Source: Bernardetiaceae bacterium (GTDB lineage: Bacteria > Bacteroidota > Bacteroidia > Cytophagales > Thermoflexibacteraceae). Taken from it: 64,000 nt of DNA. Each line of letters opens with the position of its first letter. Within the stretch, counting starts at the first letter, position 1. The stretch is from NCBI GenBank assembly GCA_025056255.1, contig JANWVT010000012.1, positions 1 through 64,000 on the forward strand, in the 5' to 3' direction. Both the position numbers and the translations under genes were made by a program. Shown in pieces: positions 21,509 to 54,914 of the stretch. The notes under the pieces were generated by a model. The model had not been told where the DNA came from, ran no database searches, and saw nothing but the letters and a program-made list of their open reading frames with translations.

Positions 21509-22090
21509 TTGACTGCTACTAAGGTGGATTACCAATCGCTATCCGATGAGGAGTTGTTAAAACTAATAGCCGACAAAAACCGACAGGCATTTCAAACTTT
21601 GTACATGCGCTATGCGCGTCGGTTGTTTGAATTTGCCTGTCGCAAAGTACCGGCTGAAATTGCCGAAGAAATTGTACAAGATGTTTTTGTGCGACTTTGG
21701 CAAAAGCCTCAACTTTGTGCCCAAGTTGGCAACACCTCTGCCTACTTGTTTGCTGCTGTGCGCTATGCTTGGCTCAATCATTTCAGGCAAGAGCTCATCA
21801 AGGAAAAATTTATTACCAATAGCTGGCAGCAAATAGAAACACAGGCGACTTTGTATGAGCATGCTGTTAAAGAAATGCAGGAGGTTATTAGCAAAGCAAT
21901 TGCTACCCTTCCTGAAAAAACACAGTACATTTTCCACCTAAGCCGTTTTGAAGGGCTCTCGCATCGGGAAATAGCCACCAAGCTATCTGTTAGTGAAAAA
22001 ACTATTGAGTATCATATTTGCCAGGCGCTTAAATGTTTGCGCGAGTCATTGCAGCCATTTTTAGTTGTCATTTTGCTGTTTATTAGTTGA
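21509..22090 (+). CDS. RNA polymerase ECF sigma factor (Bacteroidetes sigma-70 family)
   Basis: The 193-residue protein has sigma region 2 at about residues 25-95 (YMRYARRLFEFA, then EEIVQDVFVRLW and an AVRYAWLNHFR core) and sigma region 4 at about residues 130-185 with the helix-turn-helix HREIATKLSVSEKTIEYHI. The start is TTG at 21509 or GTG at 21524, as no ATG is available. Sigma factors of this family usually precede a FecR anti-sigma gene and a SusC/TonB-dependent receptor; here neither follows, so it is an orphan. Its C-terminus is hydrophobic (about ten residues). Confidence 0.93.
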   Translation: MTATKVDYQSLSDEELLKLIADKNRQAFQTLYMRYARRLFEFACRKVPAEIAEEIVQDVFVRLWQKPQLCAQVGNTSAYLFAAVRYAWLNHFRQELIKEKFITNSWQQIETQATLYEHAVKEMQEVISKAIATLPEKTQYIFHLSRFEGLSHREIATKLSVSEKTIEYHICQALKCLRESLQPFLVVILLFIS

Positions 22091-51219: not shown

Positions 51220-51253
51220 AAAGTCGCCTAATCATTTTTGGGCGACTTTTTTT
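51220..51253 (+). terminator. Rho-independent terminator
   Basis: AAAGTCGCC at 51220-51228 pairs exactly with GGCGACTTT at 51241-51249 across a 12-base loop, and the T-run continues to 51253. It ends the coiled-coil lipoprotein transcript and separates it from the sigma/anti-sigma operon. Confidence 0.85.
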
Positions 51254-51325: not shown

Positions 51326-51952
51326 ATGACCGATGAAGAGATAATAGCCGCTCTGAAAGGCACAGACAGAGCAAAACGCAACCGAGCAATGCAAGAGTTG
51401 CTTAGTCCCACTTATCGAAACATCATTCGCAACTTTATACTGAAAAATAACGGTAGCGAATCGGATGTAAGCGATATGCACCACATTGCTATCATGGAAC
51501 TTTTTGACCAAATTCAACGTGAAAAATATGAAAGAAGCGCAAGTATTAAAACCTACATATATGCTATTGTGCGCAATCAATGGCTAAAAATGTTGAGAAA
51601 AAACAAGCGCATAGTGATAGTAGATACAGAAGATATGCCCGTATTAGCCGATTGGGGCGAAAAAGTAGTAGAAGAGAAAGAAGAACAAATGAAGCATATA
51701 CTCGACTCTCTCATAAAAGATTTTGCTAACAAACCTAAAAAAAACGCTCATAACGATATTGATTGCATTACTTTGCTTCGGCTTAGGTTCTACGACAATA
51801 TGTCTGATGAAGAGATAGCCAGTCGTTATGCTATTAATAGCCATGTTACAGTGCGCACCAAGCGATTCCGATGTTTGGAAAATCTACGTAAAGTAGCTTT
51901 GCAACGTGGTTTAGACTCAATGTTGTCCATTACTGCTACCCATGAACCCTGA
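51326..51952 (+). CDS. ECF-type RNA polymerase sigma factor
   Basis: The 208-residue protein has a sigma region 2-like half (about residues 20-95, with NIIRNFILKNNGSE, a HHIAIMELFDQI helix and YIYAIVRNQWLKMLRK) and a region 4 helix-turn-helix at about residues 150-200 (LLRLRFYDNMSDEEIASRY). The linker between them is long and charged. It overlaps the following anti-sigma gene by 11 bases, a classical sigma/anti-sigma coupling. Region 2 is diverged from the other ECF in the window, so the two belong to different subgroups. Confidence 0.85.
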   Translation: MTDEEIIAALKGTDRAKRNRAMQELLSPTYRNIIRNFILKNNGSESDVSDMHHIAIMELFDQIQREKYERSASIKTYIYAIVRNQWLKMLRKNKRIVIVDTEDMPVLADWGEKVVEEKEEQMKHILDSLIKDFANKPKKNAHNDIDCITLLRLRFYDNMSDEEIASRYAINSHVTVRTKRFRCLENLRKVALQRGLDSMLSITATHEP

Positions 51953-54626
51953 GGAGAACATTATAGAAAGAGTGCAGCAATATCTCTCCGAGGAAATGAC
52001 GCCAGACGAGCGCCAAAATTTTGAGAGAGAAATAGAAAAAGACCTTGCCCTGCAAAAAGAACTGCACATACAACAAGAACTGATATATGCTATTCGCCGG
52101 CATGCTATAGCCGAACAACTGCGCTTGTTAGAGTCTCAAATATATCTTTCTGAAAAAAACATAGGTGCTCAGCCAGCATCTAACACAAGCCGCGAGGTAA
52201 GAACAACAAACATTATTTCGTTGCGTACCCGCCTCGTCAGGGTGTTGTCTGTTGCGGCAAGCATAGCGGCAGTATTACTGCTTGGATTTTGGCTGGCACC
52301 CCTGTTACAAAACTATTTTGCCGACCAACCGGTTGTAGCAAATTTCCAACCATCTTTGGAGTTTAGAAGCCCTATTAAAGGGTTAGAGGTAGCCCCGCAA
52401 ATTTTACAATTAGAGGCAGAGAAAGGCAAAATATTTCAGCTACCAAGTGGCACTACAATCCAAGTGCCCCCGAATGCTTTTGTCAATGCCAAAGGCAAGT
52501 TAGTTTCTGGAAGTGTGTACCTAACCTATCGAGAATTTCACAACGGATTAGAACTGCTGGCAAGTGGGGTTCCATTAGAAAACCTTGGCAAAAGACAAGA
52601 ATCGGTAGGACTATTTGAGATAAAAGGCTACGACCAACGCCAACAAGCCTTAAGCTTGGTAAAAAATATCAACGTACAACTCGCATCCTTTGTTAGAGAG
52701 AAAAACTATGAACAGCATTATTTGACTCATTACCACGTAGAAGAGCCTAATGGCTCGCCTGTGGTGCAGTGGCATTCAACTTCTTTTGTATCGGAACTTG
52801 TTCCCAATCTGAACAAAAGCAAATTTTTCGATTCATTGCGCGCTGCTTACTATGCTCAGGCAGAAGCTTATGCTCGAACATCCTATGAAAAACAGCAAAG
52901 TGAGTTGAAACATCAGGCTTTGCACGGATGGCAGATTAAAGCGCTCAAAAGCGACGTGATTACTGACTGGCTCAACCAACAAGGTATGGAGTATGCAGGT
53001 CTTTATCCACAACAAGAAGACCCCCAACATATAAAATGGGTGTTAGCTGCCACCTGGCAAAGAGCTCATGCCACCCCAGCCTCTTATGTGCCTTTCTCCA
53101 GAGTGGAACTATCCACTCAGGATGTATTAGCAAAAATTATTTTCACTCCCGACGGTAAAAATTTACTCATCCAATATAACAACCGTGCCCTCTTATACCA
53201 CTCCGACGGTAGCTTTATAGCAGAAATACCTCTGCAAAATACCCTCTTTACTGCTAATAGTGAATATGTAATAGGCTTATCCATTAACGGAGAACTGGCA
53301 TGCTACCGCGTAGCAGATGGTAAATTTGTAACCAAATATGGTGAGTTAATAGCTGTCAACAGTCGTGAATATGATTTCAGATCCAACATCAACAAAGTTA
53401 TGACCACACATCACATTGGGCAGGTTGTACAATATGATGTTTCTCTGAACAGTAAGCGTGTAGTTACGGTGCATAACGACGAGACTGCAGCCTTGTGGGA
53501 CATTTCTGGCAAACTCATTAGCAAACGAAAAGGACTGCCCAAAAGCTGGTTTACCGAAGTGATGTTTACTAATTACGATGGCAGCGAAATGATAGGTAAA
53601 ATGCACGATGAAACAATAGTGTACCTGAATGCACAATGGCAAATTACAGGCAGAGCCAAGTCTTTTGACAGACCTGCTCAGTATTACCCAGAACAAAAAT
53701 GGTCTCTTTCGCTGCATAAAGAATCTGTTCCACATCCAACCATAGATCCTCGCTCAATTAATAATCTTACCGATGTATATTATGAAAGAGTACCCCAGAA
53801 CTTTTTTTATGTTAGTTATAAACAAGACCATCGCTGGCAACCCATAGATACGCTGTATCAAAGTAGTGGCACTCCGAGTAGTTATGCTATTTCTCCCGAC
53901 GGACAATATGTAGCTATGATAATAAGTCATATCCATCATCGTCCTGAGTTGCTTATGTGGCAAAAAGTCGGCAGAGAAAAGCAAGTATATCGCATGGCAT
54001 TGTCAGGAGGGGCAAGCTTTGAATACACAGACAACAATAGTATGGTAAAATTGTTGCAAGCAACAAGGGCTCGCTTTTACACATATGTGCAAGTAGGCAC
54101 TCGGCAGCAAGAAAGCAAAAAACAGGCACCAACTTATGAGCAACTGTTACAAAACTACCTCAATGCAGCCAACCAAAAGCTACAACTGATGCGCAAGCAA
54201 TATGCACACCAAGCAGATTACTTACGCGTGTTCCAAGTTTCGCAGTTTGGTGTTTACAGTGCCAGTCGTCCTTTTTCTGAGTCGCCAGCAGTTTGCAAAA
54301 ACCTGCAACTGTTTGCTGAATCTACTACTGCAAGCGACAGCGTTGAGCTGTTTCAGCTTGCAGGCGCTAAACGCAATGTGGTGCTGCCATTGGGTAAGTT
54401 TTCTTTTCAAAATCCAACAAATATTGCTTTTGATGCCTCTGGTGGGCATCTGATTGGTGTAATGCCAGACAATACTGTGCTACTATTGCCTGCCAGAGAA
54501 TTTGAAGCATGGTTATACCAATATCGGAACGAAGAGAGCAGGAATAATTTGACAATACTAATGAAAAAAATAAACCAAGCAGATATTAGTTTTGCAAAAA
54601 TCAGGAAAATATTGGAAGAAGTATAA
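51942..54626 (+). CDS. Membrane anti-sigma factor with large periplasmic propeller-like domain
   Basis: The 894-residue protein has a cytoplasmic N-terminal region with an anti-sigma-type segment (YLSEEMTPDERQNFEREIEKD, residues 14-34; no zinc-binding Cys/His pattern), a transmembrane helix (about 100-122) and a large periplasmic part. The latter begins with a beta domain (about 140-265; SGTTIQVPPNAF near 169) and continues with WD40-like blade repeats (about 390-700: FTPDGKNLL, HNDETAALWD, ISPDGQYVAM). Typical anti-sigma factors have small periplasmic parts, so a binding or sensing role is likely. It overlaps the sigma gene by 11 bases. Confidence 0.85.
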   Translation: MNPEENIIERVQQYLSEEMTPDERQNFEREIEKDLALQKELHIQQELIYAIRRHAIAEQLRLLESQIYLSEKNIGAQPASNTSREVRTTNIISLRTRLVRVLSVAASIAAVLLLGFWLAPLLQNYFADQPVVANFQPSLEFRSPIKGLEVAPQILQLEAEKGKIFQLPSGTTIQVPPNAFVNAKGKLVSGSVYLTYREFHNGLELLASGVPLENLGKRQESVGLFEIKGYDQRQQALSLVKNINVQLASFVREKNYEQHYLTHYHVEEPNGSPVVQWHSTSFVSELVPNLNKSKFFDSLRAAYYAQAEAYARTSYEKQQSELKHQALHGWQIKALKSDVITDWLNQQGMEYAGLYPQQEDPQHIKWVLAATWQRAHATPASYVPFSRVELSTQDVLAKIIFTPDGKNLLIQYNNRALLYHSDGSFIAEIPLQNTLFTANSEYVIGLSINGELACYRVADGKFVTKYGELIAVNSREYDFRSNINKVMTTHHIGQVVQYDVSLNSKRVVTVHNDETAALWDISGKLISKRKGLPKSWFTEVMFTNYDGSEMIGKMHDETIVYLNAQWQITGRAKSFDRPAQYYPEQKWSLSLHKESVPHPTIDPRSINNLTDVYYERVPQNFFYVSYKQDHRWQPIDTLYQSSGTPSSYAISPDGQYVAMIISHIHHRPELLMWQKVGREKQVYRMALSGGASFEYTDNNSMVKLLQATRARFYTYVQVGTRQQESKKQAPTYEQLLQNYLNAANQKLQLMRKQYAHQADYLRVFQVSQFGVYSASRPFSESPAVCKNLQLFAESTTASDSVELFQLAGAKRNVVLPLGKFSFQNPTNIAFDASGGHLIGVMPDNTVLLLPAREFEAWLYQYRNEESRNNLTILMKKINQADISFAKIRKILEEV

Positions 54627-54629
54627 GCT

Positions 54630-54914
54630 ATGACAGCCAATCGCATACCGTATTTTGCCTGCATGGCAGTACTTTTTCTATTGCTGATAAGCGTTGCAGG
54701 AATCGCTTGTTATCGGGCTCCCTCTCCGCCGCTCAAGCCTTGGGCAGAGGCATTGCTGCTAACCGATTTTTGCTTTACAACCGAAGCGCGCTACTTGCGA
54801 CACTTCAACACATTTGAACCTCTTGCTGTATTTCAAGACCTGCCCGGCTATCATGAACATGCTCCTGCTTCCCCTTTTATTCCGCCGCTACACGTACAGA
54901 GTCGGGTAAAGTAA
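54630..54914 (+). CDS. Small exported protein in the sigma/anti-sigma operon
   Basis: The 94-residue protein begins with a hydrophobic segment (about residues 8-26) ending AGIAC, which could be a weak lipobox or a signal anchor. The remaining 65 residues are aromatic- and proline-rich with no known domain. It starts three bases after the anti-sigma stop, so it is the third gene of that operon. Its end overlaps the convergent transglycosylase gene by 38 bases, so a shadow frame is possible, but the spacing supports a real gene. Confidence 0.65.
   Translation: MTANRIPYFACMAVLFLLLISVAGIACYRAPSPPLKPWAEALLLTDFCFTTEARYLRHFNTFEPLAVFQDLPGYHEHAPASPFIPPLHVQSRVK

What the first reader, a model, noticed from the sequence alone, without database searches (positions are those of the whole stretch)
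51326..54914. ECF sigma / giant anti-sigma / small exported protein operon
The sigma gene overlaps the anti-sigma gene by 11 bases and a third small gene follows after three bases. The anti-sigma protein has an unusually large periplasmic part (about 770 residues) with a beta domain and WD40-like blades, in place of the usual short sensor. The N-terminus lacks the zinc-binding Cys/His pattern of ZAS-type anti-sigma factors. This resembles a cell-surface signalling system that reads an extracytoplasmic ligand through a propeller, possibly with the small protein as cofactor. It is the best candidate for an undescribed system here.
Basis: partly seen in the sequence, partly recalled or inferred. 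Interest (0 to 1): 0.7.

Follow-up and report, generated by a model that had tools for sequence, protein, structure and literature searches.

The report
Modular giant anti-sigma sensor pair
A bacterium of the phylum Bacteroidota carries a gene switch (a sigma factor) next to a membrane protein that probably holds it in check; that protein's large outer part is a standard exported module that other Bacteroidota use alone as a lipoprotein, or attach to several different kinds of switch, while the small third gene only happens to lie next to it.

Summary
The coordinates, the 11-bp overlap, the 3-bp gap, the single TM, the missing zinc motif and the propeller are all confirmed. The sigma/anti-sigma pairing is well supported. 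The head matches NCBI's anti-sigma model. Relatives of the outer part bear a cytoplasmic head when a sigma(-like) gene lies upstream (20 of 24 heads) and a signal peptide when not (0 of 46 have one). Sigma clades follow head type.

(1) The small gene is not a conserved partner: it occurs in 29 of 148 genomes of the order, unlinked to the sensor, also in a congener without the system. (2) The large outer part is not peculiar to this operon: it is a widespread Bacteroidota lipoprotein module, joined to at least four head types. (3) The WD40 propeller is an insertion in a conserved core. That core's predicted fold is nearest to ZU5/GAIN/FIIND domains (Z about 7-10), without sequence evidence and with an invariant Gly about where those domains self-cleave.

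Likely mechanism: membrane-bound sequestration of the ECF sigma, released by a periplasmic signal through proteolysis (inferred). The locus is dispensable: intact in 2 of 4 congeners, decayed in one, absent in one. New variant of a known kind; ligand and regulon unknown.

The parts
51220..51253 (+). Terminator-like hairpin plus T run that ends the upstream coiled-coil gene, so the sigma gene probably has its own promoter downstream of it
   Evidence: Direct reading of the sequence; a similar hairpin at the same place in G002
51326..51952 (+). ECF sigma factor, 208 aa
   Evidence: PF04542 and TIGR02937 above cut-off; family profile matches SigW, RpoE and other ECF structures
51942..54626 (+). 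Anti-sigma factor with large exported sensor, 894 aa
51942..52226 (+). Cytoplasmic anti-sigma head, residues 1-95, no zinc motif
   Evidence: NF052375 in 7 of 9 relatives' heads; helices 3-15, 21-33, 35-72 in the model
52227..52322 (+). Transmembrane helix region, residues 96-127 (hydrophobic core 101-119)
52359..52811 (+). First part of the beta core (ZU5/GAIN-like by predicted fold), residues 140-290; among the most conserved parts
53073..54011 (+). Inserted WD40-type propeller, residues about 378-690, about six blades, flanked by long helices 290-326 and 732-753
   Evidence: absent from 460-aa relatives
54207..54281 (+). Last two strands of the beta core, residues 756-780, motif RxFxVxxFG[VI]Y; invariant Gly770
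54282..54611 (+). C-terminal beta domain, residues 781-890, shared with the stand-alone lipoproteins
54630..54914 (+). Small single-pass membrane protein, 94 aa; co-directional neighbour, not a conserved part of the system; 3' end overlaps the convergent transglycosylase gene by 38 bp

Best explanation
This is a membrane-bound ECF sigma / anti-sigma pair. The zinc-less cytoplasmic head (residues 1-95) of the 894-aa protein holds the sigma factor at the inner membrane. The exported part is a sensor built from a two-part beta core (residues 140-290 and 756-780, plus a C-terminal beta domain) into which a helical stalk carrying a WD40 propeller is inserted. Binding of an unknown periplasmic ligand or partner by propeller and/or core changes the core, the anti-sigma protein is cut (site-1, then a site-2 protease such as the M50 peptidase encoded in this genome), and the sigma factor is freed. 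Shown here by computation: gene order, head type, topology, domain plan, linkage of head with sigma gene. Inferred: sequestration, ligand binding, proteolysis, autoregulation. The small third gene is an unrelated conserved membrane protein gene that this genus happens to carry downstream.
For: Head matches anti-sigma models in 7 of 9 relatives. Seven plain pairs (279-759 aa anti-sigma proteins) with the same head type each have an ECF sigma gene directly upstream. Over 70 loci: cytoplasmic head with sigma(-like) gene upstream 20, head without 4, signal peptide with sigma gene 0, signal peptide without 46 (Fisher p 7e-14). The sigma tree groups by head type, with the minimum number of changes, 0 of 200 shuffles as low. 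In G003 the sigma gene and most of the anti-sigma gene are lost together while the small gene stays. Fold. M50 site-2 protease present in the genome.
Against: No complex of sigma and head could be modelled. The NF052375 score is far below its curated cut-off. No ligand, no regulon; a shared promoter motif was not found among related loci. Only two of four congeners have the intact pair, so the function is dispensable. L081 bears a head without an adjacent sigma gene. The 320-340-aa partner genes of five zinc-type loci are only weakly sigma-like.
Confidence: 0.75

Rival explanations
1. Three-gene signalling operon as first read: the small exported protein is a dedicated cofactor of the sensor, and the whole works like cell-surface signalling.
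For: Tight gene order, same strand, kept in G002.
Against: The small protein occurs in 29 of 148 genomes of the order; at 20 loci outside this window its neighbours vary (RsmI-, DprA-, FKBP-, RpsL-like and others); in G006, G010, G041 and G056 it lies on a different contig from the sensor; in G001 it follows an endonuclease III-like gene with no sigma or anti-sigma gene.
Confidence: 0.06
2. [quoted passage not shown]
For: Also a Bacteroidota ECF sigma / anti-sigma operon with a large exported part and, for Dma2, a third gene of unknown function (PMC13088901).
Against: Dma proteins are described as head, TM, long disordered tether and C-terminal beta-barrel; here the outer part is a folded beta core plus propeller and a small C-terminal beta domain.
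Confidence: 0.05
3. The exported part is an envelope structural protein and the sigma neighbourhood is accidental.
For: The same module is common as a stand-alone lipoprotein.
Against: Head and sigma gene are linked across many lineages and sigma clades match head types.
Confidence: 0.04
4. A sensor whose core cuts itself, as ZU5/GAIN/FIIND domains do, and in which ligand pulls the halves apart.
For: Predicted fold nearest to ZU5, GAIN and FIIND; the last two strands follow the propeller insertion.
Against: At the turn between the last two strands, about where these families have HL|T/S, HF/S or SF/S, this family has an invariant Gly, which cannot act as nucleophile. The exact structural register was not measured.
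Confidence: 0.05

Closest known systems
Membrane-bound class I anti-sigma factors (RsiW/RskA/RseA type, ASDI)
   Same: N-terminal cytoplasmic helical head, one TM, sigma gene directly upstream and overlapping; relatives' heads match NCBI anti-sigma models
   Different: Exported part of about 770 residues instead of a short sensor; no zinc motif in this head; head not recognised by sequence among solved anti-sigma structures
[quoted passage not shown]
   Same: Bacteroidota, ECF sigma partner, very large exported part, three-gene operon for Dma2
   Different: Dma: disordered tether and outer-membrane beta-barrel; here a folded beta core with an inserted propeller
ECF57 sigma factors with WD40-like C-terminal extensions (PMC8999054)
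   Same: WD40 repeats linked to an ECF sigma system
   Different: There the repeats are on the sigma factor; here they are exported, on the anti-sigma protein
ZU5 / GAIN / FIIND domains (ankyrin, BAI3, CD97, CELSR1, NLRP1, CARD8, UNC5b)
   Same: Predicted fold of the core: eleven of the top twelve structural matches, Z 7.1-10.1
   Different: No sequence match; no self-cleavage residues; long helical/propeller insertion before the last two strands; periplasmic

Membership tests
ECF sigma factor | Regions 2 and 4, no region 3 | tested here: met
   PF04542 35.6 bits; region 4 at 19.9 bits, below cut-off but in place; TIGR02937 above cut-off
Membrane-bound class I anti-sigma factor (ASDI) | N-terminal helical sigma-binding domain followed by TM helix | tested here: met
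   Helices 3-15, 21-33, 35-72 and TM helix 92-127; NF052375 match in 7 of 9 heads, below curated cut-off
Membrane-bound class I anti-sigma factor (ASDI) | Cognate sigma gene adjacent | tested here: met
   11-bp overlap here and in G002 and L075
Membrane-bound class I anti-sigma factor (ASDI) | Binds and inhibits its sigma factor | not testable with these tools
   No complex prediction available
ZAS (zinc-binding anti-sigma) | Hx3Cx2C motif | tested here: not met
   No Cys in residues 1-128; motif present in five relatives with the same sensor
Cell-surface signalling (FecR type) | TonB-dependent receptor with signalling domain at the locus and FecR domain | tested here: not met
   Neighbours are RsgA, coiled-coil protein, SLT transglycosylase, MsrA; no FecR match
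Dma anti-sigma factor | C-terminal outer-membrane beta-barrel after a disordered tether | tested here: not met
   Model shows folded core, propeller and small C-terminal beta domain
ZU5/GAIN superfamily | Characteristic beta fold | tested here: inconclusive
   VIA Z 7.1-10.1 for eleven ZU5/GAIN/FIIND rows among the top twelve, next rows 6.1, but Foldseek E above 0.1 and no sequence match
ZU5/GAIN superfamily | Autoproteolysis residues (HL|T/S, HF/S) | tested here: not met
   FG with invariant Gly at the turn in all aligned members
WD40 propeller | Blades of about 40 residues matching WD40 profile and fold | tested here: met
   Family profile, VIA Z about 16 over residues 378-677; the window's own sequence is degenerate

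The most novel reading that the evidence does not exclude
Bacteroidota use one exchangeable periplasmic sensor cassette, with a ZU5/GAIN-like core that has lost (or never had) self-cleavage and a stalk-plus-propeller inserted just before its last two strands. It was fused repeatedly to unrelated anti-sigma heads with different sigma factors, and works by force or ligand on the propeller loosening the last strands to expose a protease site, a bacterial parallel to adhesion-GPCR GAIN signalling.
Probability: 0.2. Interest if true: 0.75.

Novelty: new variant of a known kind. Interest (0 to 1): 0.5.

Why it matters
Few Bacteroidota ECF sigma genes have a recognised class I anti-sigma neighbour (6% against a 32% average across phyla, PMC7406223), so a recognisable and widespread family of large anti-sigma sensors helps fill that gap. 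Because the same sensor module is found alone as a lipoprotein and joined to several head types, a ligand or partner found for one member could carry over to many, and the GAIN/FIIND-like fold gives a concrete idea of how a periplasmic signal could be turned into cleavage.

Tried and rejected
Pfam and NCBIfam on the core with and without its insertion: no family. Pfam ZU5 over 59 related genomes: no hit in this genus or family. Head profile against solved structures: only chance-level helical matches. Promoter: G002 shows TGAAAC-N15/16-GGTAT before the sigma gene, but the window has only TAAAAT...CGTAT and the pattern is not enriched in 11 related loci, so no regulon search was made. Repeated swapping of sensor between head types: the core tree mixes zinc-type and zinc-less heads with good support, but an AU test does not reject one clade for either (p 0.18 and 0.30), so the number of swaps is left open. 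My label 'sigma' for the 320-340-aa partner genes of zinc-type heads was first taken from local profiles; Pfam does not support it and NCBIfam/hhalign only weakly for region 2, so they are called sigma-like. Papers on WD40 anti-sigma factors in Bacteroidota: none found in the held library.

Full report
What is there. The three genes lie as described. The first is an ECF sigma factor; a profile of its relatives matches SigW, RpoE and other ECF structures across their length. The second has an N-terminal helical head without cysteine, one TM segment and about 770 residues outside. The third is a real 94-aa gene under purifying selection. A terminator-like hairpin at 51220-51253 separates the sigma gene from the coiled-coil gene upstream.

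Domain plan of the large protein. The AlphaFold2 model (mean pLDDT 77.7) shows head helices 3-72, TM helix 92-127, beta strands 153-288, long helix 290-326, a propeller (about 378-690), helix 732-753, two strands 760-777 and a C-terminal beta domain. The propeller matches WD40 structures (VIA Z about 16). Relatives of about 460 aa match the profile before and after the propeller but lack the propeller itself, so it is an insertion in a core that also exists without it; on the core tree the presence of the propeller needs only one change. The two core pieces are the most conserved parts.

The core. Modelled alone from a 469-aa lipoprotein (L086, mean pLDDT 84.3), its structural matches are led by ZU5, GAIN and FIIND domains, eleven of the top twelve rows (Z 10.1-7.1; ankyrins, BAI3, CD97, CELSR1, NLRP1, CARD8, UNC5b; the twelfth is an axonemal chain), ahead of rows at 6.1 and below. 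The matches run from residue 61 to 353, so the last two strands come after the insertion. Foldseek itself gives nothing significant, and no sequence method shows the link, so this is a fold resemblance only. The literature describes ZU5, GAIN/GPS and Nup98 as one autoproteolytic superfamily also found in bacterial surface proteins (PMC3482391; PMC11697300), with HL|T/S, HF/S or SF/S at the cut. Here the turn reads [FLM]G[IV]YN with an invariant Gly, so self-cleavage is not expected; the exact register was not measured.

Is it tied to the sigma factor? A scan of GTDB genomes gave 59 loci, added to loci from related genomes. Among 70 module proteins with enough upstream DNA, 20 with a cytoplasmic head have a sigma or sigma-like gene upstream, 4 do not; 46 with a signal peptide have none (Fisher p 7e-14). 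Of the four exceptions, L123 and L098 are probably lipoproteins with a start called too far upstream and L072 is a weak match; L081 is genuine. Loci are not phylogenetically independent, and five of the 20 rest on the sigma-like genes discussed below; without them it is 15 of 19 against 0 of 46. Head types: the window's YLxGxM type, the Hx3Cx2C zinc type (five of five), an LRKAIDNLP type, and a short NIDRP type. A sigma tree places the partners of each multi-row head type together (zinc 99/98, short 97/97, window type 92/84; 0 of 200 shuffles as low); the window-type set was partly chosen by head similarity. The partners of the zinc type are 320-340 aa and only weakly sigma-like (TIGR02937 in 4 of 5, best E 3.3e-4; hhalign E 4.5e-5 over region 2).

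The genus. The intact pair is in this genome and G002, at the same place between RsgA/coiled-coil and SLT/MsrA genes. G003 keeps the small gene and a 294-aa in-frame remnant of the anti-sigma gene, with the sigma gene gone. G001 has no match to the large protein, and there the small gene follows an endonuclease III-like gene. The system is therefore dispensable.

The small protein. It matches in 29 of 148 genomes of the order, with the motif LLTDYCLSTESRHTRH...APFQDLPAYHEHFPSSSF, next to varying genes and on other contigs than the sensor where both occur (G006, G010, G041, G056). It is not part of the signalling system by conservation, though it may be co-transcribed here.

How it works. [quoted passage not shown] an M50 peptidase is encoded in the genome. 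All steps after the domain plan are inference. Ligand, protease and regulon are unknown.

Novelty. The regulatory principle is known. The exported module and its reuse on several heads were not found described in the held literature, which does not include most subscription journals. The nearest described relatives, Dma proteins, have a different exported part.

Noticed in passing
window 54630-54914; L181-L200: A conserved family of about 95-110 aa single-pass membrane proteins in this order with the motif LLTDYCLSTESRHTRH...APFQDLPAYHEHFPSSSF, no Pfam match and no fixed neighbour; function unknown.
   Followed up: partly
L039 4775-5100: In G002 the anti-sigma head is duplicated in tandem (two YLxGxM-type motifs in a row); the same is seen in L059.
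   Followed up: no
L040 6357-7241: In G003 the anti-sigma gene survives only as a 294-aa in-frame remnant and the sigma gene is gone, while the small gene and the flanks are intact.
   Followed up: yes
L043, L046, L052, L076, L112: Conserved 320-340-aa genes upstream of zinc-type heads resemble sigma region 2 only weakly and have no recognisable region 4; possibly a divergent sigma family.
   Followed up: partly
window 54877-54914: The 3' ends of the small gene and the convergent SLT transglycosylase gene overlap by 38 bp; an overlap is also present in G002 and G003.
   Followed up: no
window 21599-21793: A second sigma-70 region 2 match lies in this window, apart from the finding.
   Followed up: no
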